In this document: in pieces, positions 10,991 to 61,843 of the stretch
Layout: the number at the start of each line of letters is the position of its first letter
Position numbering within the stretch: position 1 is the first letter of the stretch
From: Heloderma charlesbogerti
Lineage: Eukaryota > Chordata > Lepidosauria > Squamata > Helodermatidae
Direction: 5' to 3'
DNA length: 64,000 nt
NCBI GenBank assembly: GCA_026122225.1
Contig: JANEZZ010001383.1
Span: 124,001 to 188,000, forward strand
The notes under the pieces: generated by a model
What the model was told of the DNA's origin: nothing
The model's database searches: none
The model's input: the letters and a program-made list of their open reading frames with translations, nothing else
Translations under genes and position numbers: made by a program

Positions 10991-11518
10991 CCCACTCCCC
11001 TGGGATTCCCCTAAGCACATGTACAACTCTAAAATTATATAAAACTAATAACAAAAGCCCAGTACAGCCAGACAACAAATCAGGCCAGTAAAAACTGTAG
11101 CATCAACCTAAAATTAAAATAGGCCTTCTCCACCTCCCCTCTCAAGCACTCCACACTTAATACAATCACATCAGGCTGCTATCCAGGCTATGGCTAGCCT
11201 CTCACCCTAGCCAATTTCCCCCACCCCTCAGCTCTCATCTAAGGGATGGTTGGAATGCAGCCTCCCCAGCATTCCCATGCTCTCACCCTGGGATAGCTCA
11301 CTCACCCAAAACATGCACATGCATGCGCGCGCGCACACACACACAATCAGCATCTTTCCAGTCTTATTATGTTTACCCATATGTTGCCAAAACGTCAATC
11401 TAATCGTTTACAGAAATAACACACCCAATTAGCTCATCCCAAGATGTCCTTAAATAATAATAAGTTCAGTCTGATCTCTGGATAAAACATCCTGCACGTT
11501 CTTCCTGGGGACCCCAGC

Positions 11519-11835
11519 TATGCCCACAGAAAGTTGCCCACAGAAAGTTGTGAAGAAATACCCACAGAAAGTTGGATGCCCACAGAAATGCCCACAGAAA
11601 GTGGGTGCCCACAGAAATACCCACAGGAAGTTGGATGCCTACAGAAAGTTGGATGTCTACAGAAAGTTGGATGCCTACAGAAGTGCCCACAGAAAGCTGG
11701 ATGCCCACAGAAAGCTGGATGCCCACAGAAATGCCCACAGAAAGCTGGATGCCCACAGAAATGCCCACAGAAAGCTGGATGCCCACAGAAATGCCCACAG
11801 AAAGTTGGATGACCACAGGAAGTTGTGAAGAAATG
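11519..11835 (+). repeat. Minisatellite, CCCACAGAAA-type units
   Basis: Tandem units built on GCCCACAGAAAGYTGGAT and GCCCACAGAAAT alternate with a period of about 18, 12 or 30 bp. The flanks also duplicate: TCTGGATAAAACATCCTGCA-like DNA then GGGGACCCCAGCTATGCCC occurs at 11478-11525 and again at 11858-11905. Long ORFs on both strands here are only a product of the periodicity. Confidence 0.9.
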
Positions 11836-12163
11836 TAACAATAAGCTCAGTTTGATCTCTGGATAAAACATCCTGCAGTTCTCCCTGGGGACCCCAGCTA
11901 TGCCCACAGAAAGCTCCTTGGGCACATACCTACCGCTAGGGTGGAGGTGGCCTTGAATCGCCTGGATCCAAAGCTTCTACTTTCCCCTGAAAAGCTGCTG
12001 GAGCTGACAAGGTTAATTTCCCACCCACGCCCAGTAGAAACTAATAGGGCTTATAAAAATTAAGGAGCGCCATTTTTTGACAGAAAGGCAGGGGCAGGGG
12101 GGAAGACAGAGAAAAGTGCTACCTGCTTCCCTCCCCGAGTTAGGATGCCTCTGTAAGGGCTTA

Positions 12164-16084: not shown

Positions 16085-17967
16085 TGTGTTTGTTTCTGGA
16101 GAAGGGGGGAGTGATCTGGAAGTTGGGGGTATATCCACCACCCCCTTGTCATGGTCAGATCACTATCTGGTGATGTTGGACTTCTCAGTTCCACAACCCC
16201 TCTGCAGGGGTGGAGGACCCATTAAAATGGTCCACCCCAGGCGTCTTATGGATCCGAATGGATTCCTGAACGCGCTTGGGGATTCTCTGGAGCACGCCAA
16301 CGGCCATTCGGTCAAGACCCTGGTGGGTGGCTGGAATGCCGCAATCACTGGGGCATTAGATTAGGTGGCTCCGAAACGCCCTCTCCCCCTGAACAGGGCT
16401 TGGACTGCACCATGGTTCAATCTGCGGTTACGAGCTCTGAAACAGGAGGTGAAACAGCTAGAGCGCCGGTGGCGGAAGTCTCGCTCCGAAGATGATCAGA
16501 CGCGGGCTGGAGCTGTATCTTCAGCCTATCACGTGGCGGTGAAGGCAGCAAAAAAGGAATATTAGGCTGCCTCTATTGTGTCCGCAGCGTGCTGCTGTCC
16601 CCGGAGGCTGTTCCAAGTGGTCTGGAGCCTGGCCGGTCCAGTTGCTCCGGAACTGCTGGAGCATTCTGAGGCCTCCTGTGAGGCCTTGGCAAGGCACTTT
16701 GTGGATAAAATTGATCAGATTAGGAATGTTATTCCGTGCACTGTGGATATAGTTAGTGAGCAAGAGGTGGTCTGTGGTAAACCGGTTTTGTGGGATCGGT
16801 TTCAGCTTCTTCCTTCTGATGAAGTGGACAAGGTGCTGTCATCTGTAAGGCCGACCACCTGCTTACTTGATCCTTGCCCATCTTGGCTCATTATGAGCTA
16901 CAGAGAGAGGCTGGGTGAGGGGATCAGGGCGGTGGTGAACGCCTCCCTTGAGGAGGGAGCGTTGCCATCAGCCGTCAAGGAGAAAGAGATAGGACCGCTC
17001 TTAAAAAAGCCCTCCTTGGATCCCCAAGTTCTGAACAACTTTGCCCAGTTTCGAATCTGCCATTTTTGGGCAAGGTGATTGAGCGGGTGGTGGCAATGCA
17101 GTTGAAGGCACACTTGGAAGAAGCCGATTATCTAGATCCATTTCAATCTGGCTTCAGGCCTGGGCATGGGACAGAAACAGCCTTGGTCGCCTTGGTGGAT
17201 GACATGAGGAGGGGTCTAGATAGGGGCGATTGCTCCTTCCTTGTTCTCCTCGACCTCTCACCGGCTTTTGATATCGTTGACCACGGTATCCTCCTGGACT
17301 GCCTGGAGGGGTTGGGCATTGGAGACACCGTATTATGGTGGTTCTGGTCCTTCCTCTCCAGCAGGTACCAGAGGGTAGCACTGGGAGAGGAGGTTTTGGA
17401 CCCATGGCCGCTCACTTGTGGGGTGCCACAGGGTTCCATCCTCTCCCCGATGCTATTTAATATTTAGGTGAAGCCACTGGGGGCTATCATCAGGAGGTTT
17501 GGTGTAAAGTGTCATCAATATGCGGATGACACGCAGCTCTACCTCTCATTTAAATCTTCACCAAGGTTGGCCATAGAAACCCTGTCCAAATGTCTAGAGA
17601 CGGTGAGTGGCTGGATGGGGAAGAATAAGCTGAACCCTGACAAGACCGAGGTACTTCTGGTGGGAGACAAGAGGAGGTTGGGGGATGTCAACCTGATGTT
17701 GAATGTGGCATGGTTACCCTTGAAAGACCAGGTCTGCAGCCTGGGGGTCATCTTAGACTCCCAGCTGTCCATGGAGGCTCAGGTGTCAGCTGTGAGCCAG
17801 ACAGCGCTGTACCAACTCCATCTGATAAGGCGGCTGCGCCCCTACCTTCCCCACCATCTGCTCCCATCGGTAGCCCTGGTCTCCTCTTGTCTAGACTACT
17901 GTAATGCGCTCTACGTGGGGTTACCCTTGAAGATGGTTCAGAAGCTGCAGCTGGTAATAATTTGAAT
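16085..17967 (+). pseudogene. L2-like LINE ORF2 (endonuclease end and reverse transcriptase)
   Basis: The C-terminal endonuclease shows SDHYLVMLDFSV (about 16155-16190). The linker follows (RLRALKQEVKQLERRW), then the RT domain: FQSGFRPGHGTETALVALVD, VLLDLSPAFDIVDHGILLD, TCGVPQGSILSPMLFNI and the catalytic YADDTQLYLSF (17519-17550). The C-terminal thumb continues to CLDYCNALYVGLPLK. Stops at 16363, 16565 and 17465 and a frameshift near 17060 split it into at least four pieces. The catalytic YADD is still readable. The 3' end is missing. Confidence 0.9.
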
Positions 17968-21965: not shown

Positions 21966-22071
21966 CCCAAGAAGAAGGCCCAGCGGTGCTACTGCTGCGT
22001 CGAAGCCCTCAGTGGATTTCTCCTCCTCGTTCTGGTGGCGACCGTCATCACGCTCCTGAGATATTTTCTAG
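21966..22071 (+). CDS. Membrane-anchor exon of a matriptase-like type II transmembrane serine protease
   Basis: The acceptor is a strong pyrimidine tract ending TCTCTTCCTGCAG (21965), and the donor is G|GTAAGAG at 22072. The exon runs phase 0 to phase 1 and encodes 35 residues plus one base. It starts PKKKAQRCYCCVEA, a basic cysteine-containing cytosolic stub, and continues GFLLLVLVATVITLL then RYFL, one membrane helix. Positive charge on the N-terminal side fits a type II (N-in) protein. The arrangement of basic stub, helix and aromatic-FL at the exon end resembles the transmembrane exon of TMPRSS6 as I recall it. Cysteines beside the helix could be palmitoylated (inference). Upstream exons with the start codon were not found. 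An in-frame ATG at 21870 lies in the intron and is probably not used. Confidence 0.72.
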
Positions 22072-22394
22072 GTAAGAGCCTTTCCACAATTGGGGAGACA
22101 GTGACTGAAGCCCACCTATCATGTCCTCTTCCCTCAGCCTGGCATAATGCAGCCTGGATTCCATAGGCTCACCTGGGGGTGGGGGTGGAGTGTGGGGGGT
22201 CCGCTGAGTTGGCGCCCTGGCCCTACAGTTGTCCTCTGGCCTTGCCAGCGTGTCCCAACCAACTCTATTGCAGTTTACCTCACTGAGCTGTTGTGAAGGC
22301 AAATCTGTACTTCTGTTGTGGAACAAAGCACCTCATGAATCGATCCCTGGCAGAACTTCTTTCGGCCTGAAAGACTGGTGAGGTTGGTTCGTTT

Positions 22395-23000
22395 TGCTCA
22401 TTCAGAAGTGTCCGTTCCAGGCCATTCTGTTCTCTTCTGGATGTGTTCTGGGCAATATCAGGTTAATAATATAATGTTGCAAGGGGCTTCATCCTAAAAT
22501 ATTGTTTTCAAGTGTTTCTAGCACATGCCACTATTTTTGGCATGCTTTTTTTTTTTAATCTAAAGGGCCCGTTCTCGCTGTTACACCACTGGGCATGTTT
22601 AGCCTTGAGAAGAGGAGATAGGATGGCACTCTTCATGTCCTTGAAAGGTTGTCTCAGAGAGGAAGGCCAGGATCTCTTCTTGATCATCCCAGAATGCAGG
22701 ACACGGAAGAACGCGTTCATGTTCCAGGGAGCCAGATTCCAGCTGAACATCAGGAAAAACTTCCTGACTGTTAGAGCAATGCATCAAGGGAACCCATTCC
22801 CTAGGGCGGTGGTGGGCTCTCCCACACTGGAGGCGTTCAAGACAAGGCTGGACAGCCACCTGTCGGGGATGCTCTGACTTGGATTCCTGCATTGAGCAGG
22901 GGGCTGGACTCGATGGCCTTGTAGGACCCTTCCAACCCTACTATTCTATGATTCATCCCCTAAACAACTTGAGATCAGGAATAGACACTTCTGAATGAGC
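22395..23000 (+). mobile_element. Inverted-end DNA element split by CR1 (intronic)
   Basis: TTTGCTCATTCAGAAGTGTC at 22393-22412 pairs with GACACTTCTGAATGAGCAAA at 22985-23004. The left body matches 19820-20010. A CR1 3' fragment (22585-22955) sits inside it, just after GCTGTTACACCA. This lies in the intron between the two exons of the membrane-protein gene. Confidence 0.75.
22585..22955 (+). mobile_element. CR1 LINE 3' fragment
   Basis: The frame reads LKGCLREEGQDLFLIIPECR, FQLNIRKNFLTVRAM and VVGSPTLEAFKTRLDSHLSG. It ends with GGACTCGATGGCCTTGTAGG and CTATTCTATGATTC, the CR1 3' signature. Confidence 0.92.
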
Positions 23001-23074
23001 AAAATCAACCAAATTCACCAGTCACACATAACTCCATGGCAGGGATGCAATAAACCACAAAACATCCACAAAAA

Positions 23075-23300
23075 TCATGTTCAGATACCCATTATGGGCA
23101 ATAGTTCAAAAATGTCAGCATCTTGTAGCTTAAAGCTCTCACCGCCAGTAACTAACTCGTAGGAGAGGCATTTCAGCCTTTTAGAATGGGGGGGAAAAAT
23201 GCACCAAAGCCAGGAAACCACCGGATGATTGGTGGTTGGGGAAAAGGGGATGGAGCCAGGGGAAGGGGGCTTGGCCTTCTGGGGAACCCCGGAGGGGCGG
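23075..23300 (+). mobile_element. hAT-like element fragment (intronic)
   Basis: Shares CATCTTGTAGCTTAAAGC, AGAGGCATTTCAGCC and AAAGCCAGGAAACCACCGG with 12298-12535. Confidence 0.55.
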
Positions 23301-23469
23301 ATATGGCCCCCAGGCCTGTGGTTCTCCATCTGTTCTCACAAAGGTCATGTTCTCAGTCTATGCCTTGGCTGTGTCCACTTGCTTCATCTGCAATCAGTTC
23401 GCATGACCAAATCTTCCTCCCTGCCAAAGGAACCCCCCCCCATCCCTATGCTTAGAATACTAGCACGTT

Positions 23470-23642
23470 AGGAATACACTGTCTTGGGAAGGGGTGGATT
23501 TCCCTTTGTTCGAGGAATTTAAGGAGAGGCTGGGCAGCCTTCTGTCAGGGATGCTGTTACTGTTACTGCATCCTTCAAGAAGGAGCAGGGAGTTGGACTA
23601 GGTGACTTCTGAGGTCCCTTCCAACTCTGTGATTCTATTATT
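23470..23642 (+). mobile_element. CR1-like 3' fragment (intronic)
   Basis: GGATTTCCCTTTGTTCGAGG and AGGGAGTTGGACTAGGTGAC are followed by CCCTTCCAACTCTGTGATTC, an older CR1-type 3' end. Confidence 0.75.
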
Positions 23643-23794
23643 GAATTTGGAACCTTCTGTTTGCAAAGTGTGTGCACTCTGTTACTGAGCTATAGCCCCT
23701 TTCTAATGGGATGGGGGGTGGGTGGAGTTGGAATTTGATCCCAATTGCCTCAATAACTGCTGAAAGCAATGATTCTCACTAAGCCCTAAACTGT

Positions 23795-24175
23795 TTCCAT
23801 TTATTTATTTATTTCTATACGGCGCAATAGCCGAAGCTCTCTGGGCGGTTCACAGAAATTAAAACCACAAAGTGTAGCATAAAATATAAAATATGAAAGC
23901 TTAAAACTACAGAACAGTACAACCTGAATAAAACCTAGCAGCAATGCAGAGATTTAAAACACTAAAACTAAAAGACTAGGAAGCTAAAATACTAAAATAC
24001 TGGGAGAATAAAAAGATCTTCACCTCTAAAAGGAAGTAGACTATAGATGGAAGCATAGATGGAGGCAAAAGAACCTCTCTAGGGAGCTCATTCTACAGCC
24101 AGGGGGCCACAGCAGAAAAGGTTCTCTTCCTGGTAGCCACCCACCTCACTTCCTTTGGCGGGGGCTCACAGAGAA
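23795..24175 (-). mobile_element. L2-like LINE 3' end, reverse (intronic)
   Basis: Starts with the reverse tail ATTTATTTATTTATTTCTAT and continues with the same UTR as 12540-12800 (AAACCTAGCAGCAATGCAGA, GAGAATAAAAAGATCTTCAC). It ends in the reverse of the ORF2 end. Confidence 0.8.
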
Positions 24176-24182
24176 GCCTCCC

Positions 24183-24312
24183 TGAACCTGGTGCCCTCCT
24201 CCAGCTTCCCTGAACCTGGCACCCTCCAGATGTGTTGGACTGCAACTCCCATCATTCCCATGCTGGCTGTGAATGATGAGAGTTGCAGTCCAACATTATC
24301 AGCAGACCACCA
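24183..24312. repeat. Foldback version of the 1-70 repeat
   Basis: GTGTTGGACTGCAACTCCCA pairs with GAGTTGCAGTCCAACATTA, flanked by AACCTGGCACC and CCAGGTTGGGG. It is a small hairpin-forming element 160 bp upstream of the large exon. Confidence 0.7.
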
Positions 24313-24469
24313 GGTTGGGGGATAATGCCATACTCAGTCGCTCGCTACCTATTTCAGGACGTCACTAGTAAATGCTGTAAGCTGAAATATAAAAGAGTGG
24401 GAGGGAAACTTGAATAGGTTTAGTTAATATTTGTGGATGCATCTTCCCCCACCCCCCACCCCACAACAG

Positions 24470-27400
24470 AGTTCTCCGATGTTTCGTCCGCATTTGCTGG
24501 GAATACAACTGGGCTCTTCGTCAATGTGACAGCAACCCAAGAGCCCACCGGAAGATTTATCTTTGCCAGGACTCCTCCTCGAACCTCAGCCATGAACAAG
24601 ACCATTTTCCAGCAACCCATGGCCCCTTTAAAGTTGATGTCCCCTCAGACATCACCTCGGTGGAAGATGGATTCTCCTCAGCTGCCTACCGAGAAGCCCA
24701 ATCTATGGACTTCTTCACAGCCGCTCATTTCAGTGACAGGAGGCGTCTTGCCACAAAAGTTCCCTTTAGCCACAAAACCAAGGTCTCCCCAGCTGACCCT
24801 GCCCATGAAGTGGATGTCGCCACAGCACCTCACATTGGCCATTGAAGAGACTCCATTGCCTACTCTATCCTCAGCCACAAAACTGCTATCTCCTCACCCA
24901 CTCACCTCAGCTGGGAAACCAGCGTTGCCCCAGGATCTCTCCTCAGCACCGGAGCGGACCTCTGCACACCAGCTAAGGCCAGCTGTAGAATGGACGTCCC
25001 CTTCTCGGCTTAATTCGGCCACAAAATGGATGCTTCCACCTCCCCTAACTGAGGCCATGCAACCGAAATCTCAGTACCAAACCACAACTGCAAACTTAAC
25101 TTCTCCACAGAGGTTAGCCACTTCCACAAAATGGAAATCTTCGGAGTTCCCTCCAGCCATGCTATCTTCACCACAGTTAACCCAAGCTACTAGCCTGGCA
25201 TCTCCACAGCAATGGACCACAACCATGAAACAAAGTTCTCCTAGTCAGCCAACTTCAGCAGTTAAATTGAGGTTTTTACCTCAGTTTGCTACAGCCATGA
25301 AATGGGCATCTCCTAGTCAGCCAGCGTCAGCCATTAAATCAGGCTTTTTACCTCAGTTTGCTCCAGCCATGAAGCAGACATCTCCTAGTCAGCCAGAGTC
25401 AGCCATTAAATCAAGGTTTTTACCTCAGTTTGCTCCAGCCATGAAATGGACATCTCCTACTCAGCCAGCGTCAGCCATTAAATCAAGGTTTTTACCTCAG
25501 CTGACCACAGTCACAAAGCAGACATCTCCTAGTCAGCCAACTTCTACCCTTAAATCAAGGTTTTTACCTCAGTTTGCTCCAGCCATGAAACGGACATCTC
25601 CTAGTCAGCCAGCGTCAGCCATTAAATCAAGGTTTTTACCTCAGTTTGCTCCAGCCATGAAGCAGACATCTCCTAGTCAGCCAGAGTCAGCCATTAAATC
25701 AAGGTTTTTACCTCAGTTTGCTCCAGCCATGAAATGGACATCTCCTACTCAGCCAGCGTCAGCCATTAAATCAAGGTTTTTACCTCAGCTGACCACAGTC
25801 ACAAAGCAGACATCTCCTAGTCAGCCAACTTCTACCCTTAAATCAAGGTTTTTACCTCAGTTTGCTCCAGCCATGAAACAGACACCTCCTAGTCAGCCAG
25901 CGTCAGCCATTAAATCAAGGTTTTTACCTCAGCTGACCACAGTCACAAAGCAGACATCTCCTAGTCAGCCAACTTCTACCCTTAAATCAAGGTTTTTACC
26001 TCAGTTTGCTCCAGCCATGAAACAGACACCTCCTAGTCAGCCAACGTCAGCCATTAAATCAAGGTTTTTACCTCAGTTTGCTCCAGCCATGAAACGGACA
26101 CCTCCTAGTCTGCCAGCGTCAGCCATTAAATCAAGGTTTTTACCTCAGCTGACCACAGTCACAAAGCAGACATCTCCTAGTCAGCCAACTTCTACCCTTA
26201 AATCAAGGTTTTTACCTCAGTTTGCTCCAGCCATGAAACAGACACCTCCTAGTCAGCCAACGTCAGCCATTAAATCAAGGTTTTTACCTCAGTTTGCTCC
26301 AGCCATGAAACGGACACCTCCTAGTCAGCCAGCGTCAGCCATTAAATCAAGGTTTTTACCTCAGCTGACCACAGTCACAAAGCAGACATCTCCTAGTCAG
26401 CCAACTTCTACCCTTAAATCAAGGTTTTTACCTCAGTTTGCTCCAGCCATGAAACGGACACCTCCTAGTCAGCCAGCGTCAGCCATTAAATCAAGGTTTT
26501 TACCTCAGTTTGCTCCAGCCATGAAACGGACACCTCCTAGTCAGCCAGCGTCAGCCATTAAATCAAGGTTTTTACCTCAGCTGACCACAGTCACAAAGCA
26601 GACATCTCCTAGTCAGCCAACTTCTACCCTTAAATCAAGGTTTTTACCTCAGTTTGCTCCAGCCATGAAACGGACACCTCCTAGTCAGCCAGCGTCAGCC
26701 ATTAAATCAAGGTTTTTACCTCAGCTGACCACAGTCACAAAGCAGACATCTCCTAGTCAGCCAACTTCTACCCTTAAATCAAGGTTTTTACCTCAGTTTG
26801 CTCCAGCCATGAAACGGACACCTCCTAGTCAGCCAGCGTCAGCCATTAAATCAAGGTTTTTACCTCAGCTGACCACAGTCACAAAGCAGACATCTCCTAG
26901 TCAGCCAACTTCTACCCTTAAATCAAGGTTTTTACCTCAGTTTGCTCCAGCCATGAAACGGACACCTCCTAGTCAGCCAACGTCAGCCATTAAATCAAGG
27001 TTTTTACCTCAGTTTGCTCCAGCCATGAAACGGACACCTCCTAGTCAGCCAGCGTCAGCCATTAAATCAAGGTTTTTACCTCAGCTGACCACAGTCACAA
27101 AGCAGACATCTCCTAGTCAGCCAACTTCTACCCTTAAATCAAGGTTTTTACCTCAGTTTGCTCCAGCCATGAAACAGACATCTCCTAGTCAGCCAACTTC
27201 AGCCATTAAATCAAGGTTTTTACCTCAGCTGACCACAGCCATTAATCTTACAGTTGTGAAACTAAGCTCTCCACAGAATCTAACTACAGCCTCTCCATGG
27301 CAAATAACTTCCCCCGTGAATGTGACTTTTCCTCAGCACCTGTTTTCGGGCCAAGAAATTTCTGGTTCGAGCGGTGGAAATGATACCACCAGTCAATACT

Positions 27401-27501
27401 TCAAGGGCTCCTTCCGTCTGGTGAATGAAATCTACCATTCCGGCTACAGCGACACTGCTTCTGACAGTTTCAGGAAGGAGGCCACGAAGCTGGAAAATAT
27501 G
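24470..27501 (+). CDS. Giant repeat-stem exon ending in the start of a SEA domain (matriptase-like protease)
   Basis: The acceptor is CCCACCCCACAACAG (24469), entered in phase 1. The donor is ATG|GTGAGT at 27502, left in phase 0. The 1,011 codons are open throughout. Order: (a) 24470-25236, Ser/Thr/Pro-rich stem with loose 12-residue repeats (for example WTSPSRLNSATK, WMLPPPLTEAMQ) and four N-glycosylation sequons (NTT, NVT, NKT, NLT). (b) 25237-27252, 28 exact 24-residue repeats. (c) 27253-27390, a unique stem with more sequons (NLT, NVT, NDT). (d) 27391-27501, YFKGSFRLVNEIYHSGY then SDSFRKEATKLENM. Part (d) aligns by eye with the first strand and helix of the SEA domain in matriptase-type proteases, including an exon end at the Met, as I recall for TMPRSS6. 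The expected region between helix and SEA in TMPRSS6 is only about ten residues, so the stem is a large lineage addition. Downstream SEA, CUB, LDLRa and protease exons were not located. A secreted or mucin-like protein with SEA is the alternative. Confidence 0.75.
25237..27252 (+). repeat. Coding tandem array, 28 x 72 bp
   Basis: The period is exactly 72 bp with no indel in 2,016 bp. Each unit is two 12-residue halves, typically SPSQPTSAIKSR and FLPQFAPAMKRT. Variants fall into types: A (PTSTLKSR..FAPAMK), B (PASAIKSR..LTTVTK), C (SAIKSR..FAPAMK) and E (PESAIKSR). From unit 9 on, the order is a mix of A-B dimers (144 bp) and A-C-B trimers (216 bp). Units 2-5 and 6-9 are a duplicated C-E-B-A tetramer. 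Each unit has three or four Lys/Arg and almost no acidic residue, so the stem is strongly basic. No N-glycosylation sequon lies inside the array until its last residues. Confidence 0.97.
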
Positions 27502-30597: not shown

Positions 30598-30626
30598 TAG
30601 TAAATTTGTAATTATTGTCTGAATAG

Positions 30627-31697
30627 ATTAGAACTACACAACAAACTGTGGCAAATTCTGAAAGAGATGGGGGTACCAGACCACCTTACATGTCTCCTGA
30701 GAAACCTGTACGAGGGTCAAGAAGCAACAGTAAGAACCAGACATGGAACAACCGATTGGTTCAAAATTGGGAAAGGAGTACGACAAGGCTGCATATTGTC
30801 GCCCTGCTTATTTAACTTATATGCAGAGTACATCATGAGAAACGCCGGGTTGGATGAATCACAGGTCGGAATTAAGATTTCCGGGAGAATTATCAACAAC
30901 CTCCGATATGCAGATGATACCACCCTAATGGCAGAAAGCGAAGAGGATCTCAAGAGCCTCTTGTTGAGGGTGAAAGAGGAGAGTGCAAAAGCTGGTTTGA
31001 AACTCAGCATTAAAAAAACGAAGATCATGGCATCTGGCCCCATCACTTCCTGGCATATGGAAGGGGAAGAAATGGAAGCAGTGACAGATTTTATTTTCTT
31101 GGGCTCCAAGATCACCGCAGACGGCGACTGTAGCCATGAAATTAAAAGACGCTTGCTCCTTGGGAGGAAAGCTATGGCAAACCTAGACAGCACAGTAAGA
31201 AGCAGAGACATCACCTTGCCGACAAAGGTCCGTCTGTCTAATCAAAGCTATGGTTTTCCCAGTAGCAACGTATGGCTGTGAGAGCTGGACTATAAGGAAG
31301 GCTGAGCGCCGAAGAATTGATGCTTTCGAACTGTGATGCTGGAGAAGACTCTTACGAGTCCCCTGGACTGCAAGGAGGTCAAACCCGTCCATACTAAAGG
31401 AAATCAACCCTGAGTGCTCATTGGAAGGACAGCTACTGAAGCTGAAGCTCAAATATTTTGGCCACCTAATGCGAAGAGAAAACTCTCTGGAAAAGACCCT
31501 GATGCTGGGAAAGACTGAAGGCAAAAGGAGAAGGGGACGGCAGAGGATGAGATGGCTAGATAGCATCACCGATGCAATGAATATGGACTTGAGCACGCTC
31601 CGGGAGAGAGTGCAGGACAGGAAGACCTAGCGTGCTATGGTCATGGGGTCACAAAGAGTTGGACGCGACTGAATGACTGAACAACAACAACAACATT
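30627..31697 (+). pseudogene. BovB (RTE-clade) LINE, RT to 3' end
   Basis: The frame from 30667 reads MGVPDHLTCLLRNLYEGQEA, then GKGVRQGCILSPCLFNLYAE, INNLRYADDTTLMAESEEDL and DFIFLGSKITADGDCSHEIK. These are diagnostic BovB reverse-transcriptase blocks with an intact YADD. A four-base-scale insertion near 31235 shifts the frame. 31250-31630 continues with FPVATYGCES-like and KYFGHLMRRENSLEKTLML blocks. The 3' end is GAGTTGGACGCGACTGAATG then (AAC)n. It is 5'-truncated and starts 30 bp after a MITE. BovB is patchily distributed and abundant in squamates and ruminants. With the Sauria SINE, it supports a squamate source. Confidence 0.95.
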
Positions 31698-47160: not shown

Positions 47161-47535
47161 AGAGATGCCCATACACTGTGAATCCATTTACACAGCTAAC
47201 TGGTAAGCAGTCAGCTAGACCCACTTAAGAACTTGAGCAACTCCTGTATTCTGTTTTAAAAGAGGATTAAAATCCAACTGGCTGCTCTTGGACATACCGA
47301 AGAGTTTGATGTTAGTCAGCCTGCTTCCTGGGATTCTTACGCAGACCGGCTTTACCTGGAAGCAAATAAGATAGCCAATGCTGAACAAAAGTGAGCTGTG
47401 CTCTTAATGGTTTGCGGGCCACAGACATTTGCCATAATAAGATCCCTCACTGCTCCTGCCTCACCCCAAACGAAGACATTTGATGAACTTTTAGGATGAC
47501 TGAAGATACATTTCTCACCAAATCCTTCAATTATT

Positions 47536-47826
47536 GTGCAGAGATTTAAATTTCACAACCGAATGCAGCAACCTGGAGAGGGCATTGCCACTTATATTGC
47601 AGAACTGTGTCATCTTTCTCAATGCTGCAACTTTGGGGATTTTCTAGAGGATATATTGAGGGATCGCCTTGTCTGTGGGGTTTATGATGAAGCACTACAG
47701 CGATGCCTCCTGTCCAAGACAAACTTGACATTTGCAATGGCTCAAGAAAAGGCATTAGCCAGTGAGACTGCATCACTATATGTCACAGAACTCAAGAGAG
47801 ATGCAGATGATGTCAGTGCCATCTGA
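47536..47826 (+). pseudogene. Gypsy gag (capsid part)
   Basis: Reads FKFHNRMQQPGEGIATYIAE then LCHLSQCCNFGDFLEDILRD and RLVCGVYDEALQRCLLSKTN, the Ty3/Gypsy capsid pattern. The nucleocapsid motif follows after a stop, at 47915-48010 (CSGCGGPHQCSLCRFKDAEC), with a degraded CCHC spacing. Confidence 0.85.
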
Positions 47827-48154
47827 AGCAAGCAGACTGAGTATTCTGGGTAGCAAGGTCAACAGAACACAAGAAATGCACGCTCTGTAAAATCTGCAGG
47901 TAGGCCCTGGCTTACCTATTCCTGCTCAGGCTGTGGAGGACCACATCAGTGCTCTCTCTGCAGATTCAAGGATGCTGAGTGCAGGTTTTCAAGAAGAAGG
48001 GTCACCTTGAGCGATTCTGCCACTCAAAATCTGTCAGCACAAGACCAGAGTCACTCCACATAGCGTTTCATGGAGCTGATTAGCCACAGGGTAATGAAAC
48101 TCAACAGCTATATCACATTCAGAAGATCCGTGGCAAGGAACCTCATGATTCTCT

Positions 48155-48352
48155 GTGTTGTATGAAACAGTATTAATCAATGGCCGGAAGTGCAAAATGG
48201 AAGTGGATTCAGGATCTGGGGTATCCATAATTAATGAGGCACCTTTAAGCACATATTTTCTGGGACCCCTGCTCCAAAGTTGTCAAGTCCATCATGCATT
48301 CTGCGTGATTACAATGCAAAGAAGGTCGATATCGTCAGATTCTGCACTGTAG
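48155..48352 (+). pseudogene. Gypsy protease
   Basis: Contains MEVDSGSGVSII, the aspartic-protease active-site motif (D-S-G) of retroelements. The frame breaks soon after, and the sequence continues in the 48280-48642 frame (LLGRNWFSSVGI, VSLHLDPSITPICMKTRNVP). Confidence 0.8.
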
Positions 48353-48619
48353 ATGTACAATATAGCTCATTCCAAGGAAAGCTTCCACTTATAATTGTGG
48401 AGGGGCAGAGGAAAAACCTCTTGGGGAGAAACTGGTTCTCATCAGTAGGGATTAGCATTCAAGGAATTCACACCCTTACTACAGGTCGGCTTGCAGCAAT
48501 TGTTAATATATTTCCAAGGGTATTTTCTGAAGAATTGGGAGAATACAAAGGGAAGCCAGTGTCACTCCATCTGGATCCATCTATTACACCAATTTGCATG
48601 AAAACCAGGAACGTTCCTT

Positions 48620-48922
48620 TTGCAATGCAGGGGAAAAAATGAAGAAGAGCTTGAGCATCTCATCAAGCAAGGTGTGGTAGAACCAGTTACACAGACCCAG
48701 TGGGCTATACCCATTGTGCCAGTATTAAATCCTAATGGGAATGTGAGACTGTGTGGGGATTACAAGTGCACTGTGAATAAAGTACTTAAGCAGCATCTAT
48801 ACCCAGTGCCTGCTGTCAATCAGTTCCTTGCTGTTCTTGGTGGAGGGAAGGTCTTTGCAAAACTTGATCTGGCCCAAGCATATCAACAGTTGGTTGTCGA
48901 TGATTCTACAGCAGATGCCTAA
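48620..48922 (+). pseudogene. Gypsy reverse transcriptase, N-terminal part only
   Basis: Reads EELEHLIKQGVVEPVTQTQW, VRLCGDYKCTVNKVL and GGKVFAKLDLAQAYQQLVVD, RT motifs 1-3. The palm motif with YxDD is missing: sequence jumps from FQQFMETLLSQ (about 48990-49020) straight to RNase H, so an internal deletion removed the catalytic core. Confidence 0.88.
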
Positions 48923-49024
48923 ACAATAATCATTCATCAAGGGGCATTCTGAGTAAAGTGTCTGCAATTCGGAATTTCTGTGGCCTCTGGACTGTTCCAA
49001 CAATTCATGGAAACCCTACTTTCT

Positions 49025-49602
49025 CAAATGTCAGATGGGACAGAGGCACCAATTGCTTATTATTCAAGGACTATGTCATCCACTGAATGGAACTTTGCAC
49101 AAATTGACACAGAAGCCTTGGCTGTTATTGCAGGCATCAAAAAGTTCCACAACTATCTCTATGGCCATACTTTTGAAATACACACAGACCACAAGCCTCT
49201 TCTAGGAATCTTCTCTCCTGGTAAGCCTACTCCCTGCATACTATCATGCAGCATTGGAGCATTCTGCACAATGCTTATGATGGCACACTTGTCTACAAGC
49301 CAGGAAAGGCAGTAGCGAATGCTGATGGATTGAGTTGGATACTACTTCAAATTCCAGATTTTGTTGTACCTCCTCCACTGGAAGTCTTGATGCTCGAAGC
49401 CCTTCCTGACCCACCTCTTCAGGCTGATCAAATTGCTAGGCTGACTGCTCGAGATCCTGTACTGGCTCGTGTTTTAAACTGGGTATGGAGGGGATGGCCC
49501 GATGAGGAACTGCCAGAGGAATTTAAGCCATTCAAACATCGTCAGCATAAGATGTCTGCCCATAAGTCTGCTATGGGGAAATCGTGTTGTTATTCCAGAT
49601 AA
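49025..49602 (+). pseudogene. Gypsy RNase H and connector
   Basis: Reads IAYYSRTMSSTEWNFAQIDT, EALAVIAGIKKFHNYLYGHT and FEIHTDHKPLLGIF, the Ty3/Gypsy RNase H. A frameshift near 49235 moves it into the frame with VANADGLSWI. The segment to 49602 leads toward integrase. Confidence 0.88.
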
Positions 49603-49792
49603 AGGTCGTCAAACCATCTTGACCACGCTGCATGCAGCTCATCCAGCTCATTTCATGTTTGCATGAAAGCATTGACCACGAGCTATGTCTGGTGGCCCAG
49701 TATTGACTCAGATATTGAAAAAAACTGTAATGGGCACAATCCACCAAGAGCACCTATCTTTCCATGGGAATTGACCAAGAAGTCTTGGTCAT

Positions 49793-49866
49793 AGAATCAT
49801 AGAATAGTAGGGTTGGAAGGGGCATATAAGACTATCGAGTCCAAGCCCCTGCTCAATGCAGGTATC
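49793..49866 (-). mobile_element. CR1 LINE 3' tail, reverse, inside Gypsy integrase
   Basis: ATAGAATCATAGAATAGTAG then GGTTGGAAGGGGCATATAAG and CTGCTCAATGCAGGTATCC. It separates the integrase zinc-finger side from the catalytic core. Confidence 0.88.
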
Positions 49867-50070
49867 CATATTGATTTTGCAGGACCGTTTCAAGGAAAAA
49901 ACTTCTTAGTTGTAGTAGATTCTTACTCGAAGTGGCTTGAAGTTGTCTTAGTACCATCACAAACAGCCGCTGCAACAATCACAGCACTGCCCCACTTACT
50001 TGCCACCCATGGGTTGCCTACAGTCTCAGACAGTCGGACTGCTTTTACATCTGCTGAATTTAAATAATTT
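49867..50070 (+). pseudogene. Gypsy integrase core
   Basis: Reads HIDFAGPFQGKNFLVVVDSY, SKWLEVVLVPSQTAAATITA and LLATHGLPTVSDSRTAFTSA. The first catalytic Asp region (HIDFAGP) is present. In the second motif the usual Asp after the V is followed by SR. Later frames reach GVSPAELL-like sequence near 50250. Confidence 0.87.
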
Positions 50071-50786
50071 GCGGACAAGAACCTCACTTGGGCTGTCACC
50101 GTTGCACCTCGTCATCCCTGAGCAAATGGCCAAGCTGAATGGATGGTGCAGACAACAAAAGATGCCCTGAAGTGCATTGCATGAGGAGACTGGCCAACAT
50201 GCCTTGCCAGGTTTCTCGTTGCTCAACATGTTACTCCCTGTGCAACAGGAGTCAGTCCTGCAGAGTTACTTATGGGGCGGCATCTCAAAACTTGCCTTGA
50301 CCGACTCCACTCCACCTGAAGACTTACAAAGTAAACGGGAGCAAGCTCTAGATGTGGCCTTCTCAGCTCCTCCTCTCTGCTCATTTGCTCCACAAGATCA
50401 GGTGTTTCCTAGAAACTATGGTGCTGGACCGAGGTAGGTTCCTTCCTCTATCATTGAGGTCATTGGACCTGTGTCATACAAGGTCCAGTGTGCAGATGGG
50501 TCGGTGTGGCATCGCCATGTTGACCAGTCGAGAAGGCGTTCTGGCCAGAGTGGGTTGTCATCCTCAGAGGCAGCTGCTGAACATCTGGAACTGATGTGTT
50601 TCTCTCACCGCCAGCGGAAGCACCAGAACCTCTAAGTGATGGGAGCAATACTCCTTCCTTACCTACAGCAGGTACTGAAAGGAAGTCATCTGAGCAAGCT
50701 ACACCTGCTAGTCGAGTGCAGAGACTGTGCTGTGAAAGGGTACCACCTTGTTGGCTGGGAGACTATGATAGCTAAGGGGGGAGGAA

Positions 50787-53204: not shown

Positions 53205-54822
53205 CAGTCTTCTCCTGAAACACGGCTTATGAGGCGAAGTACAGACTGAAGGGGCAGGATTGCAGCTTGAGATCAAGAGGCATATGGTCAAGGAACACCT
53301 AATGACTTTGAATGAATTCAAATCTCCAGGGCCAGATGAACTACACCCTAGAGTAATAAAGGAACTGGCAGAAGAACTCTCGGAACCACTGTCTATTATC
53401 TTCCAGAAATCATGGAGGACGGGTGATGTGCCAGATGATTGGAGGAGGGCTAATGTTGTCCCTATCTTCAAAAAGGGCAAAAAGGAGGAACCTGGGAACT
53501 ACAGACCAGTCAGTCTGACATCAATCCCTGGGAAAATTCTGGAGCAGATGATAAAGCAATCCATAAGCACCTTGAAAACAATGCAGTGATTACTCGAAGC
53601 CAACATGGATTTGTCAAGAACAAATCCTGCCAGACAAATCTAATCTCATTTTTTGATCAAGTAACCTCCCTTGTGGACTGTGGGAATACTGTGGACATCA
53701 TATACCTCAACTGCAGCAAAGCTTTTGACAAAGTGCCCCATGATATCCTGATGAGCAAACTAGCTCAAAGTGGGCTAGGTGAAACAACGATCCGGTGGAT
53801 CCACAGTTGGCTACAGGACCGGACTCAAAGAGTGCTTCTCAATGGGATCTTCTCAAGCTGGGGAGAGGTAACGAGCAGGCTACCACAAGGCTCAGTCCTG
53901 GGCCCAGTGGTCTTCAACATTTTTATTAATGATTTGGAGGAGGAGGTGCAAGGAATGCTGATCAAATTTGCAGATGACACAAAATTGGGCAAGATAGCTA
54001 ATACCCTGGAAGACAAAAACAAAATTCAGAGTGATCTTGATAGACTGGAGCGCTGGGAAGAAAACAACAGAATGACATTTAATAGGGATAAATGCCAAGT
54101 TCTGCACCTAGGAAAAAGAAACCAAAGGCACAGTTACAAGATGGGTAATACATGGCTCAACAATACTACAAGTGAGAAGGATCTTGGAACTGTTGTAGAT
54201 CGCAAGCTGAAGATGAGCCCACAATGTGATGTGGCTGCAAAAAAGGCCAATGCTATTTTGGGCTGCATTAATAGAAGCATAGCTTCCAAATCCCGGGAAA
54301 TACTAGTTCCCCTCTACTCAGCACTGGTTGGTTCTCATCTGGAGTACTGTGTCCAGTTCTGGGCACCACACTTTAAGAAGGATGCAGACAGACTGGAGAG
54401 GCTTCAGAGGAAGGCAATGAATATGATCAGGGGACTGGAAAAAAGCCCTATGAAGACAGAATGAAAGGACTGGGCATGTTTAGCCTGGAGAAGAGAAGAC
54501 TGAGGGGAGATATGATAGCGCCCTTCAAGTACTTGAAAGGTTGTCCCAGAGAGGAAGGCCAGGATCTCTTCTTGATCATCCCAGAGTGCAGGACACGGAA
54601 GAATCGGCTCAAGTCACAGCAAGCCAGATTCTGGCTGAACATCAGGAGAAACTTCCTGACTCTTAGAGCAATGCGACAATAGAACCCATTACCTGGGGAG
54701 GTGATGGGCTCTCCCACACTGGAGGCGTTCAAGATGAGGCTGGACTTGGATTCCTGCACTGAGCAGGGGACTCGATGGCCTTGTAGGCCCCTTCCAACCC
54801 TAATACTCTATGATTCTATGAG
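53205..54822 (+). pseudogene. CR1 LINE, RT to 3' end, copy 1
   Basis: Frames read NEFKSPGPDELHPRVIKELA, NVVPIFKKGKKEEPGNYRPV, then ITRSQHGFVKNKSCQTNLIS, NCSKAFDKVPHDIL, PQGSVLGPVVFNIFINDLEE, and the catalytic KFADDTKLG. The thumb ends LVGSHLEYCVQFWAPHFKKD. One frameshift near 53575 and another near 54435 break it. The 3' end has GACTCGATGGCCTTGTAGGC and TCTATGATTCTATGA. It is 5'-truncated, as is usual for CR1. Confidence 0.95.
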
Positions 54823-55565: not shown

Positions 55566-57650
55566 TTTTTTAGGGCTGCGCACAGACCCACCCACCCCGC
55601 TTCGCTTTGGATGCCACTTCAGACCTTCTGAAGCAGCCCCACTTTGCTTTGGACCTATTTGGACCTTATCCGCTTCCCTTCAGATTCAGATCCAAAGAGA
55701 GACTCGGATATCCGAATCATTCTATGACATTTTCCCATTAACTTGCACTGGAAAATAGAAACGGCCATAACCGTTTATGTTTTCATGAAAAATACATGAA
55801 GCTTGGGGATCTTTCAACCTCTATGGAAGGGATTCCACCTGCTAAATTTCAGACAGTTTGTCCAAGTAGTTTTTGTGCTAGGCAGAGGTTAATTTTTTTA
55901 TTTTTTCAACAAAAACTCTGAAAGCAAAGAGCTATAACTTGTCACTGTTTCCACAGAACCATGTGAAATCTGGGGACCTCTCAGCCACCATGGAGGGGAT
56001 CCCACCTGCCAATTTTCAGAAAGTTTGGCCAGTAGTTTGTGTGCTATGCACATGTTAAATGTACTGTTCTCAGAAACTCAAATCAAAGGCCATAAAGGGA
56101 TTGTCAGAGAAGCTGGGTGTTGAAGCCGTGATTAGGAGGAGGTCACTATCCCTAGTCTCTGCTGTAGGTTTCTTTGAAGTGCAAATATCCCCTCTCCCCT
56201 TTCCCATTCAGCTTCACAGTGGATGACCTCAAGCTCTCTTTGGCTGAATTTGGAATATACATTGCCTGGGGTAGTTTTTGTGCTAATCTGTGTGTGGGAG
56301 GGGGGGTACCAGACACAAAATGAATATTTTATATTTATTTTATATTTTAATAAAAAAATTAGCCACACCACACCTGCCAAATTTCAGACAGTTTTTAATT
56401 AAAAAAATGATGCAAGTGAACTGAAGGAATTGAGAGTGCAGCAAAGGGCACACCATTATCCAGTTTATATTTATATATGCAGTTGGTGATCTGGCCAGGT
56501 GCTGGAAACCTCCACCTCGTGGACCCATACTTCCCCCACTCCATCTCTTCCATGGTGGCCTGCCAAAGCCTCTTCAGAGTGAGAGACAGAGAGCATGCAG
56601 GAATTTGGGCACTATCAGCCTTCTGCTTGCCCCTGCTGCCTGCCCACTGGGATGTGGGGGCCTCTTTCCTGACCAAGACCGATTGGTGCTGCCTCCTTAA
56701 GTGCAGGAGCAGGCTGCTGGTGGTGTTGTGCCCTGGCTGTTTCCCCCTGCTCAGAGACACCTTGCAGTGGTGGTGGACAGCAGTGCTGGGATTCGCTCCC
56801 ACCTCAAAGTGGTCCCACACGATGCTGCCGTGGTGTTTCTGTGGAGACAGAGACTGCCTGCCTTGAGTCTCGGGGGTCACCACATGAGCAGGGGGAACAA
56901 TGGAAGAGGGAGATGAGGAGGGGGACACCTCTGACATAACGTCCAACAGTGGGCTCCCCTCTTCCCTGCAGAAGGAGATGGTGCTCCTTTGGCAACAGTG
57001 CTACTGTGCAGCCTGCACCAGCCTCCTCAAACAGTGACCTCCAGGCACTGCAATTTGCCTCCGTGCTCTGCTGTCCTGCTACACCGGGGCACACTATCTG
57101 GACTAGGGGAGAGCCAGCTTGCCTACCAGTGCTGCTAGTCCCAGCGGTACCTCGCCCACATCTGCCCCTGCCAACAAGACCCCGAAGATGCCTCAGCTTT
57201 GGCTTGCTTGCTTTGCCACACAGTGTAGTATTATATTATTTAAATAGTAGCTGTTAATGTGCGTGTGTAGTGCTTTGCCCACTGTTTTTTGCAATATGGA
57301 CCACGTAGTGCTTTGCCACACTCTGTTTCCTTCTCCACAGCACAAGCACACACACACACACAAGAGCAAAAGAAAAGCAACCACTGAACTACCTACAAGC
57401 AAAGGGTGGGGGGACTATCTATAATCCTAACAGAAGAGAAAAGGGTTTTTAATTGGGGGCGGGGGGATAAAAAATGGGAAGGGAAGGAATACAGGGATTG
57501 AGAAGGGTGGGGGTAGGAGGTGGATGGAGAGGAGCCAAGAACAAGGACAGGCAAGGAGTATGAGAGAGAGAGAGAGAGTGAATTGAAGTAAGAGCAAACT
57601 AAAGGCTGAAAGAGAATTGAGAAGGGGGAAGCTAAAGAACAAAGCAAGGC
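55566..57650. other. No gene recognised
   Basis: Unassigned DNA with ORFs up to 183 codons (56946-56395, -) that lack domains. (AC)n and (GA)n tracts occur near 57350 and 57565. The paired CATGTGAAATCTGGGGACCT-type sentences at 55800 and 55960 are an internal imperfect repeat. Confidence 0.45.
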
Positions 57651-57651
57651 A

Positions 57652-58812
57652 ACTAAATGCAGTGATTACTCGAAGCCAACATGGATTTGTCAAGAACAAA
57701 TCCTGCCAGACGAATCTGATCTCTTTTTTTGATCAAGTAACCTCCCTTGTGGACTGTGGGAATGCTGTAGACATCATATACCTCAACTGCAGCAAAGCTT
57801 TCGACAAAGTGCCCCATGATATCCTGATGAGCAAACTAGCTCAAAGTGGGCTAGATGAAGCAACGATCCGGTGGATCCACAGTTGGCTACAGAATCGGAC
57901 TCAAAGAGTGCTTATCAATGGGATCTTTTCAAACTGGGGAGAGGTAACGAGCGGGGTACTGCAGGGCTCATTCCTGGGCCCAGTGCTCTTCAACATTGTT
58001 ATGAATGACTTGGAGGAGGGGTTGCAGGGAATGCTGATCAAATCTGCAGATGACACAAAATTGGGCAAGATAGCTAATACCTTGGAAGACAGAAACAAAA
58101 TTCAAAGTGATCTTGATAGACTGGAGCGCTGGGCAGAGAACAACAGAATGACATTTAATAGGGATAAATGCCAAGTTTTGCACCTAGGAAAAAGAAACCA
58201 AATGCACAGTTACAAGATGGGGGATACGTGGCTCAACAACACTACAAGCGAGAAGGATCTTGGAATTGTGGTAGATCACAAGCTGAATATGAGCCAACAG
58301 TGTGATGTGGCTGCAAAAAAGGCCAATGCTATTTTGGGCTGCATTAATAGAAGCATAGCTTCCAAATCCCAGGAAGTAGTAGTTCCCCTCTACTCAGCAC
58401 TGGTTAGGCCTCATCTGGAGTACTGTATTCAGTTCTGGGCACCATACTTTAAGAAGGATGCAGACAAACTGGAGAGGATTCAGAGGAGGGCAACAAAGAT
58501 GATCAGGGGACTGGAAACCAAGCCCTATGAAGACAGACTGAAAGGACTGGGCATATTTAGCCTTGAGAAGAGAAGACTGAGGGGAGATATGATAGCGCTC
58601 TTCAAGTACTTGAAAGGTTGTCTTAGAGCAATACAACAATGGAACCAATTACCTAGGGAGGCAGTGGGCTCTCCCACACTGGAGGCATTCAAGACAAGGC
58701 TGGACAGCCATCTGTCAGGGATGCTCTGACTTGGATTCCTGCACTGAGCAGTGGGTTGGACTCGATGGTCTCGTAGACCCCTTCCAACCCTACTATTCTA
58801 TGATTCTATGAT
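57652..58812 (+). pseudogene. CR1 LINE, RT to 3' end, copy 2
   Basis: An uninterrupted frame to 58729 gives FVKNKSCQTNLISFFDQVTS, NCSKAFDKVPHDIL, LQGSFLGPVLFNIVMNDLEE, KSADDTKLGKIANTL and LVRPHLEYCIQFWAPYFKKD. The catalytic FADD has become SADD, and the GVPQGS motif reads GVLQGS. A deletion near 58622 removes the EEGQDLFLIIPEC segment that copy 1 retains. It is close to copy 1 in sequence (same junction CAGTGATTACTCGAAGCC). Confidence 0.95.
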
Positions 58813-60500: not shown

Positions 60501-61092
60501 ACTTCTACATACATCCATGGTGTTAGTTACTTTTCAGGGTCTGCTCTTCCAGCCTGCCCACCCACCCACCCACCCGCCCCAGGTCTGCTTGTAGCACTGT
60601 GGGAACCACACTGACCTGCCCCATCAGGTAATCTGGATTGCAGCCAAGTTCAGTTCCTTGGAATAGGATTTGCGCAACTACAATCCACCAGCCACTTTGA
60701 CCTAATATAATTAATATAATTGCCCCTTAATTTTCTTCAGTGGCAACATTAGATCACTCAGAAAGGCCATAGGTTGAGTCTCACCTCTGGCATGAACTGA
60801 CAAGGTGGCTTTTGGCAAGCCTGTCTCTCTCAGCCTCTGCCTCCTCACCTGCCCTATGGAGATGATAAGTTGTGACATACCTGCCAGGGCTGTTGTAAGA
60901 TTTTGGGATAATGGACATGGAGAATGTCCAAGCATTTAGGAGCGAGCAACACAACAGAAATGCTGTGTGTTGTTAATTGTCTTAAATGGTTTGATTTTTA
61001 ATTAAAGTCACCCAGAAGCAACATCTGGTTGTTCTTGGGGAGGTTTGTGGGTTTCTGTGATCACTGTGAGGTTATACATACTTTAACGCAGG
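60501..61092. other. No gene recognised
   Basis: A (CCCA)n tract is at 60557-60577. No chemokine exon 2 was found. Confidence 0.45.
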
Positions 61093-61843
61093 CAGAAAGC
61101 AAAGAGGATCTCAAGAGCCTCTTGCTGAGGGTGAAAGAGGAGAGTGCAAAAACTGGTTTGAAACTCAACATTAAAAAAACGAAGATCATGGCATCTGGCC
61201 CCATCACTTTCTGGCATATGGAAGGGGAAGAAATGGAAGCAGTGACAGATTTTATTTTCTTGGGCTCCAAGATCACCGCAGACGGTGACTGTAACCATGA
61301 AATTAAAAGACACTTGCTCCTTGGGAGGAAAGCTATGGTAAACCTAGACAGCATAGTGAGAAGCAGGGACATCCCCTTGCCGACAAAGGTCCGTATAATC
61401 AAAGCTATGTTTTTCCCAGTAGTAACATATGGCTGTGAGAGCTGGACTATAAGGAAGGCTGAGTGCCGAAGAATCAATGCTTTCGAACTGTGGTGCTGGA
61501 GAAGACTCTTACGAGTCCCCTGGACTGCAAGGAGGTCAGATCAGTCCATCCTAAAGGAAATCAACCCTGAGTGCTCATTGGAAGGACAGCTACTGAAGCT
61601 GAAGCTCAAATATTTTGGCCACCTAACGCGAAGAGAAAACTCTCTGGAAAAGATCCTGATGCTGGGAAAGACTGAAGGCAAAAGGAGAAGGGGACGGCAG
61701 AGGATGAGATGGCTAGATAGCATCACTGATGCAATGAATATGGACTTGAGCACGGTCCAGGAGAGAGTGCAGGACAGGAAGGCCTGGCGTGCTATGGTCC
61801 ATGGGGTCACGAAGAGTTGGACACGACTGAACGACTGAACAAC
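61093..61843 (+). pseudogene. BovB LINE 3' half, copy 2
   Basis: Starts in the middle of the RT domain (ESKEDLKSLLLRVKEESAK) and runs in one frame through DFIFLGSKITADGDCNHEIK, PTKVRIIKAMFFPVVTYGCE, WCWRRLLRVPWTARRSDQSI and RGRQRMRWLDSITDAMNMDL to the natural end SWTRLND and a stop. The 3' terminus is AGAGTTGGACACGACTGAAC. The YADD segment is absent because of 5' truncation. It lacks the frameshift seen at 31235 in copy 1. Confidence 0.95.

What the first reader, a model, noticed from the sequence alone, without database searches (positions are those of the whole stretch)
21966..27501. Matriptase-like membrane protease with a giant tandem-repeat stem
Seen: a single-helix exon splices in phase to a 3-kb exon. 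That exon encodes about 970 residues of stem, including 28 identical-length repeats, before the first strands of a SEA-like domain. Known: in matriptase-type proteases (ST14, TMPRSS6) the segment between membrane helix and SEA domain is very short. Inference: in this squamate lineage a minisatellite expanded inside the stem-coding exon. The result would be a mucin-like but strongly basic stalk that pushes the SEA/CUB/protease head tens of nanometres off the membrane. I know of no description of such a stalk.
Basis: partly seen in the sequence, partly recalled or inferred. Interest (0 to 1): 0.88.

Follow-up and report, generated by a model that had tools for sequence, protein, structure and literature searches.

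The report
Matriptase-like protease with giant repeat stem
In what looks like a reptile genome, one exon of a membrane-anchored protease gene most like human TMPRSS6 (the iron-regulating matriptase-2) carries about 970 extra stem residues made largely of a 12-residue repeat, which would give the enzyme an unusually long, positively charged stalk if the gene is expressed as read.

Summary
A membrane-helix exon (21966-22071) joins in phase to a 3,032-nt exon (24470-27501): 1,046 codons without a stop, about 974 stem residues, then the first 36 positions of a SEA domain (Pfam E=2.7e-4, partial). Both introns match human TMPRSS6 in position and phase (c.229/230 and c.363/364). Human exon 3 has 134 nt, so this one is 966 codons longer. 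A TMPRSS6-type protease is therefore likely, but the HAT/DESC protease HAT scores nearly as well on sequence, and no protease exon was found in the window.

The 'recent minisatellite' is half the story. The basic unit is 12 residues. A young, homogenised array (27.9 copies of 72 bp) lies next to about 190 codons of older, diverged 12-mers. In the old part codon positions 1 and 2 keep the repeat and position 3 does not, as expected under selection on the protein, so the stem probably was a coding repeat before the young expansion. It is Ser/Thr/Pro-rich (42%), basic (115 K+R, 14 D+E) and cysteine-free. Function, expression, species and downstream domains are not shown. New variant of a known kind.

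The parts
21966..22071 (+). exon encoding a basic cytoplasmic flank and one transmembrane helix (PKKKAQRCYCCVEALSGFLLLVLVATVITLLRYFL), ends in phase 1
   Evidence: alignment to human TMPRSS6 TM exon, score reached by 0 of 1000 shuffles; donor at the position and phase of human intron 2
24470..27501 (+). giant exon 3: stem plus first third of a SEA domain, ends in phase 0
   Evidence: donor at the position and phase of human TMPRSS6 intron 3
24652..25224 (+). old, diverged 12-residue repeats of the stem (191 codons analysed)
   Evidence: lag-12 and lag-36 residue autocorrelation z 4.5 and 4.2; codon positions 1 and 2 but not 3 keep the 36-bp repeat
25225..27231 (+). young 72-bp (24-residue) array, 27.9 copies, higher-order 144- and 216-bp pattern
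27232..27393 (+). post-array stem, with four N-glycosylation sequons (NLT, NLT, NVT, NDT); not alignable to the repeat above shuffles
27394..27501 (+). first 36 positions of a SEA domain
   Evidence: Pfam PF01390 E=2.7e-4 (42-residue piece) or 0.036 (whole exon), profile 1-36/106; gap-free alignment to TMPRSS6 up to M121

Best explanation
[quoted passage not shown] The exon that in humans joins helix to SEA domain with a few residues has grown by 966 codons, largely through in-frame tandem duplication of a 36-bp, then 72-bp, unit. SHOWN: the open frame, splice signals, two-layer repeat, SEA start, intron identity with human TMPRSS6, and a signature of protein-level constraint on the older repeat layer. 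INFERRED: the transcript; the downstream CUB/LDLA/protease head beyond the window; and the work of the stem. The stem is probably an unfolded, O-glycosylatable, polycationic tether that sets how far the head stands from the membrane and lets it reach or stick to anionic glycocalyx. Its many K/R sites also offer places for shedding cleavage. The array length probably varies by unequal exchange.
For: Intron 2 (c.229/230) and intron 3 (c.363/364) of human TMPRSS6 fall in codon G77 in phase 1 and after M121 in phase 0. The window's donors fall at the aligned residues in the same phases. Pfam SEA, 1-36. SEA part and TM exon align to human TMPRSS6 beyond all 1000 shuffles each. Matriptase-subfamily profile 21.1 bits against 16.9 for HAT/DESC. 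1,046 codons open. In the old repeat layer the excess identity at repeat lags is 0.159, 0.081 and 0.023 for codon positions 1, 2 and 3 (reached by 0, 0 and 118 of 1000 codon shuffles).
Against: No SEA-second-half, CUB, LDLA or protease exon was recognised in 27502-64000, so intron 3 would exceed 36 kb. The tblastn hit of TMPRSS6 to the SEA exon (E=0.034) stands barely above a spurious hit (0.045), and the TM exon has only E=2. HAT scores nearly as well as human TMPRSS6 (SEA 57 against 60, TM 38 against 40) and as well as or better than mouse TMPRSS6 (57 and 33); TMPRSS9 also reaches 34 on the TM exon. The exon-3 acceptor is weak and a stronger, out-of-frame acceptor lies at 24570. In the young array pN/pS is 0.69, little constraint. 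The reference sequences were recalled; of human TMPRSS6 the stretch from G77 to about residue 334 was checked against PDB 9nrc and agreed save at one spot.
Confidence: 0.65

Rival explanations
1. The gene is a HAT/DESC (TMPRSS11-type) protease rather than TMPRSS6; the stem expansion and its consequence are the same, but the head would be SEA plus protease only.
For: Human HAT aligns almost as well as human TMPRSS6 and no worse than mouse TMPRSS6 (SEA 57, TM 38). TMPRSS11A has GSFK at the place of window GSFR. HAT/DESC stems hold a single SEA domain (passage).
Against: Profile score 16.9 against 21.1 bits for the matriptase subfamily. Both introns match TMPRSS6 exactly; HAT/DESC introns could not be compared here.
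Confidence: 0.2
2. A partial duplicate or dying gene: exons 2-3 were copied away from the rest or cut off from it by transposon growth, and the open frame is not translated.
For: No downstream exon recognised in 36.5 kb, a stretch with several retroelement ORFs. Weak exon-3 acceptor and little constraint within the young array.
Against: 251 + 669 + 90 codons without a stop, 0% indels in the array, strong splice signals at three of four sites, and a signature of protein-level constraint on the old layer.
Confidence: 0.12
3. The long exon is real, but most transcripts use an acceptor inside it, so the usual protein has a short or intermediate stem. (Not exclusive of the best explanation.)
For: The crude PWM gives the exon's first acceptor 3.67. 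41 of 83 in-frame internal AGs score at least as high, and 18 of 83 score 6.5 or more (against 4 of 174 out-of-frame AGs); 11 of the 12 best in-frame ones printed are the repeated CTCCAG|CCATGA.
Against: A crude PWM is not a splicing model. The old layer's constraint suggests that the long form was long translated.
Confidence: 0.2
4. A membrane mucin or other SEA protein unrelated to proteases.
For: Ser/Thr/Pro-rich repeats next to a SEA domain are typical of membrane mucins (recalled); MUC1 SEA aligns weakly (36, z 3.7).
Against: The helix precedes the repeat and SEA (type II), whereas mucins have repeat-SEA-helix (recalled). TMPRSS6 introns and better TTSP alignment.
Confidence: 0.05

Closest known systems
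TMPRSS6 / matriptase-2 (matriptase subfamily of TTSPs)
   Same: helix exon ending at YFL|G in phase 1; SEA-start exon ending in phase 0 after KM/NM; type II layout; gap-free SEA-start alignment
   Different: exon 3 is 3,032 nt against 134 nt; a stem of about 974 residues against about 8-10; repeat, basic, no cysteine
HAT/DESC proteases (TMPRSS11D, TMPRSS11A)
   Same: type II helix followed by a SEA domain; close alignment scores
   Different: lower profile score; HAT as recalled goes from helix to SEA in a few residues; introns not compared
Enteropeptidase (TMPRSS15)
   Same: TTSP with SEA; recalled as having a mucin-like part in its heavy chain (none of the 12 papers listed holds the phrase 'mucin-like domain')
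   Different: poor alignment (SEA z 2.2, TM z 0.04)
Membrane mucins (MUC1, MUC16)
   Same: long Ser/Thr/Pro repeat array beside a SEA domain, with length set by repeat number (recalled)
   Different: opposite order of helix, repeat and SEA; mucin repeats are not known to me to be this basic (recalled)

Membership tests
Type II transmembrane serine protease (TTSP) | single N-terminal membrane helix with basic inner flank | tested here: met
   PKKKAQR + about 22 hydrophobic residues, read; alignment to the TMPRSS6 helix exon 0/1000 shuffles. The first, more N-terminal coding exon was not found
Type II transmembrane serine protease (TTSP) | stem domain of a TTSP kind (SEA) following the helix | tested here: met
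   Pfam SEA positions 1-36 of 106, E=2.7e-4 (42-residue piece) or 0.036 (whole exon), below curated cut-off, partial
Type II transmembrane serine protease (TTSP) | C-terminal S1 serine protease domain | tested here: inconclusive
   not found in 27502-64000 by tblastn with four recalled TTSPs; would lie beyond the window
TMPRSS6 (matriptase-2) | intron 2 in phase 1 at codon G77 and intron 3 in phase 0 after M121 | tested here: met
   human positions from passages of PMC9331965 and PMC12841354; window positions; residue check. ST14/TMPRSS7 introns not compared, so this may be shared by the subfamily
TMPRSS6 (matriptase-2) | closest sequence match among SEA-TTSPs | tested here: inconclusive
   human TMPRSS6 best, HAT close, mouse TMPRSS6 not better than HAT; matriptase profile 21.1, HAT 16.9, TMPRSS6-only 16.0, ST14+TMPRSS7 13.6 bits
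TMPRSS6 (matriptase-2) | synteny and CUB-CUB-LDLA-protease head | not testable with these tools
   no vertebrate genome or protein collection answered
HAT/DESC | SEA plus protease only; HAT/DESC sequence | tested here: inconclusive
Membrane mucin | repeat-SEA-helix order (type I) | tested here: not met
   helix exon lies 5' of the repeat and SEA on the same strand; whether a second helix follows further 3' is unknown
Membrane mucin | Ser/Thr/Pro-rich tandem repeats | tested here: met
   S+T 26.5%, P 15.7% of 964 stem residues; glycosylation itself not testable

The most novel reading that the evidence does not exclude
The stem is a selected, length-adjustable stalk. An old, constrained 12-residue repeat was extended by a young array, and 17 of the 27 full repeat units hold an in-frame splice-acceptor-like site, so that both repeat number and splicing could give a ladder of stalk lengths. 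The ladder would set how far a matriptase-2-like protease reaches from the cell, and its polycationic KSR/MKR sites would tie it to the glycocalyx or allow its release.
Probability: 0.12. Interest if true: 0.82.

Novelty: new variant of a known kind. Interest (0 to 1): 0.6.

Why it matters
In the TTSPs recalled and compared here the segment between membrane helix and SEA domain is short. An exon that keeps both ancestral introns yet adds 966 in-frame codons would show that this segment tolerates, or uses, mucin-sized insertion. If the gene is TMPRSS6, it touches the protease that tunes hepcidin and iron, and asks whether reach from the membrane matters for cutting a membrane-bound substrate. 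It also offers a clean case of a coding repeat caught with an old constrained layer and a young homogenising layer side by side.

Tried and rejected
Considered and rejected or lowered: a chance open frame; a membrane mucin (helix order); a single recent minisatellite (old layer). The Pfam Ig_J_chain match to the array (E=1.6e-5, 0 stretches passing) is taken as a repeat artefact. The post-array part does not align to the repeat above shuffles (z -0.2), nor do the first 60 exon residues (z 1.3), so I do not count them as repeat. The 42-residue SEA piece found no related PDB chain. AlphaFold of 447 residues (26161-27501) from a single sequence gave mean pLDDT 44.8: uninformative, at most compatible with disorder. 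The scan for a human-like exon 4 found nothing better than reverse-strand controls (best score 3 forward against 12 reverse). The ORF lists were cut in the output and read only in part, by eye. Rfam gave no match at gathering thresholds. A 47-base piece of the array has no exact match in viral contigs. Papers: of the ten searches I saw titles and starts of abstracts; none listed names a repeat stem in a TTSP. Only 18, 19, 37, 51 and 52 bear on that; one search asked for any two of five terms and was swamped by reptile papers, and by repeat papers, so this is weak evidence of absence. PMC9331965, PMC12841354 and PMC3154331 were seen as passages only.
Full report
What is there. On the + strand, exon 21966-22071 (106 nt) encodes PKKKAQRCYCC followed by one hydrophobic helix and RYFL. 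It begins after a strong acceptor and ends at a strong donor in phase 1. Exon 24470-27501 (3,032 nt) begins at a weak acceptor and ends at a strong donor in phase 0. Joined they read 1,046 codons with no stop. The last 36 residues match Pfam SEA from its first profile position to position 36 of 106: E=2.7e-4 for a 42-residue piece, 0.036 for the whole exon. The match is below the curated cut-off; only a third of the domain is present.

Which gene. With recalled human TMPRSS6 as query, tblastn put the SEA exon first (E=0.034), barely above a spurious hit at 0.045, and the helix exon at E=2.0. ST14, TMPRSS15 and HAT did not list either exon in its sense frame among the 12 best rows I printed for each. 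Alignment scores for SEA part and helix exon: human TMPRSS6 60 (z 9.3) and 40 (z 4.7), 0 of 1000 shuffles each; mouse TMPRSS6 57 (z 8.3) and 33 (z 3.5, P 0.006); HAT 57 (z 8.3) and 38 (z 4.1, P 0.001); ST14 48 and 25; TMPRSS7 39 and 24; TMPRSS9 18 and 34; TMPRSS15 30 and 22; MUC1 SEA 36; MUC16 SEA 27. So sequence alone does not part TMPRSS6 from HAT. Small profiles gave 21.1 bits for the matriptase subfamily and 16.9 for HAT/DESC. In the same call, seven of seven leave-out controls scored higher with their own subfamily.

The strongest evidence is the gene structure. Passages of two TMPRSS6 variant papers (PMC9331965; PMC12841354) name variants c.230-6G>A, c.229+945C>T (stated to be in intron 2) and c.363+149G>A (listed under intron 3). 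Human intron 2 therefore lies after the first base of codon 77 and intron 3 after codon 121. In the recalled protein these are G77 (WYFL|G) and M121 (AKAQKM|); Leu166 of the papers agrees with the recalled numbering. The recalled sequence has 812 residues, and residues 449 and 552 of the papers are off by one, which fits the one-residue gap seen against PDB 9nrc well after residue 166. The window's two donors fall at the aligned residues (RYFL|, KLENM|) and in the same phases. Human exon 3 is thus 134 nt and this one 3,032 nt, a difference of 2,898 nt or 966 whole codons. Whether ST14, TMPRSS7 or HAT/DESC share these introns I could not test.

The stem. From the helix to the SEA start there are about 974 residues. 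Of the 964 measured, P is 15.7%, S 14.1%, T 12.4%, K+R number 115, D+E 14 and the computed pI is 12.0. There is no cysteine in the first 975 residues of the exon, and there are 8 N-glycosylation sequons, none inside the array, and 26 KSRF motifs. TRF finds 27.9 copies of 72 bp with no indels. Printed by motif, the unit is 12 residues, e.g. AMKQTSPSQPTS / AIKSRFLPQFAP, and the 24-residue dimers are arranged in 48- and 72-residue higher-order units. Among 27 full 72-bp units there are 12 distinct sequences, one of them present 9 times. DNA identity is 0.46 at lag 36, 0.83 at lag 72 and 0.90 at lag 216. This is a young, homogenising array with pN/pS 0.69.

The old layer. The pre-array part (residues 61-251 of the exon) is a diverged form of the same 12-mer: residue autocorrelation is highest at lag 12 (z 4.5) and 36 (z 4.2), with lag 24 at 2.6 (lag 30, not a multiple, reaches 2.5), and it aligns to the array consensus above all of 500 shuffles (105 against a maximum of 95). 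At lags 36, 72 and 108 bp, the excess of identity over 41 other in-frame lags is 0.159, 0.081 and 0.023 for codon positions 1, 2 and 3; 0, 0 and 118 of 1000 codon shuffles reach these. The lags were chosen after the 12-residue period was seen. Loss of the third position with retention of the first two is what selection on the amino acids leaves.

What is missing. I recognised no exon for the SEA second half, CUB, LDLA or protease domains in 27502-64000 (the ORF list was cut and only partly read). That stretch holds retroelement remnants: of 8 ORFs from it given to Pfam, 3 matched RVT_1. The gene would have to continue beyond the window, with an intron 3 of more than 36 kb, or be broken. The exon with the start codon was not found either. 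Searches in the assembly and in protein collections did not answer. Species is not established.

How it may work (inference). A disordered chain of this length would span about 30 nm as a coil and up to about 200-300 nm if stiffened by O-glycans; these are rules of thumb I recall, not results. AlphaFold without an alignment gave pLDDT 44.8 and says little. A polycationic, Ser/Thr/Pro-rich tether could stick to the anionic glycocalyx, lift the head, or offer K/R cleavage sites for release. A splice caveat: 18 of 83 in-frame internal AGs score 6.5 or more on a crude PWM, above the exon's own first acceptor (3.67), against 4 of 174 out-of-frame ones. Eleven of the 12 best in-frame ones printed are CTCCAG|CCATGA, which belongs to the units ending in FAPA, 17 of the 27 listed. 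A strong out-of-frame acceptor lies at 24570. Real transcripts may therefore carry shorter stems.

Verdict. Function, expression and the head are open. New variant of a known kind, interest 0.6.

Noticed in passing
window 11520-11823: A second, unrelated minisatellite (ATGCCCACAGAAAGCTGG-type units of 12/18/30/48 bp) in the upstream flank; open for over 100 codons on both strands (e.g. 11475-11825 + and 11469-11846 -), not examined for a gene.
   Followed up: no
window 16952-17464, 30604-31278, 53454-54461, 57587-58726: Reverse-transcriptase ORFs (Pfam RVT_1); by recall CR1-like (53-54 and 57-58 kb) and BovB-like (30-31 kb, also 61002-61835, which had no Pfam match). The mix fits a squamate but is not proof.
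   Followed up: partly
window 47500-50600: ORF fragments that read like a Gypsy-type retroelement (protease, RT, RNase H and integrase-like words, by eye); three pieces given to Pfam had no match at E 0.01.
   Followed up: partly
window 25225-27231: The array carries two kinds of acceptor-like sites: TTTTTACCTCAG (28 counted in the exon; the one printed is out of frame) and CTCCAG|CCATGA (in frame with the helix exon, in 17 of 27 full units), which could allow splicing into the array.
   Followed up: partly
window 24570: A strong acceptor-like site (GATTTATCTTTGCCAG|GACTCC, score 10.5 against 3.7 for the one used in the reading) 100 nt inside the exon; by reading, its use would shift the frame to an early stop.
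   Followed up: partly
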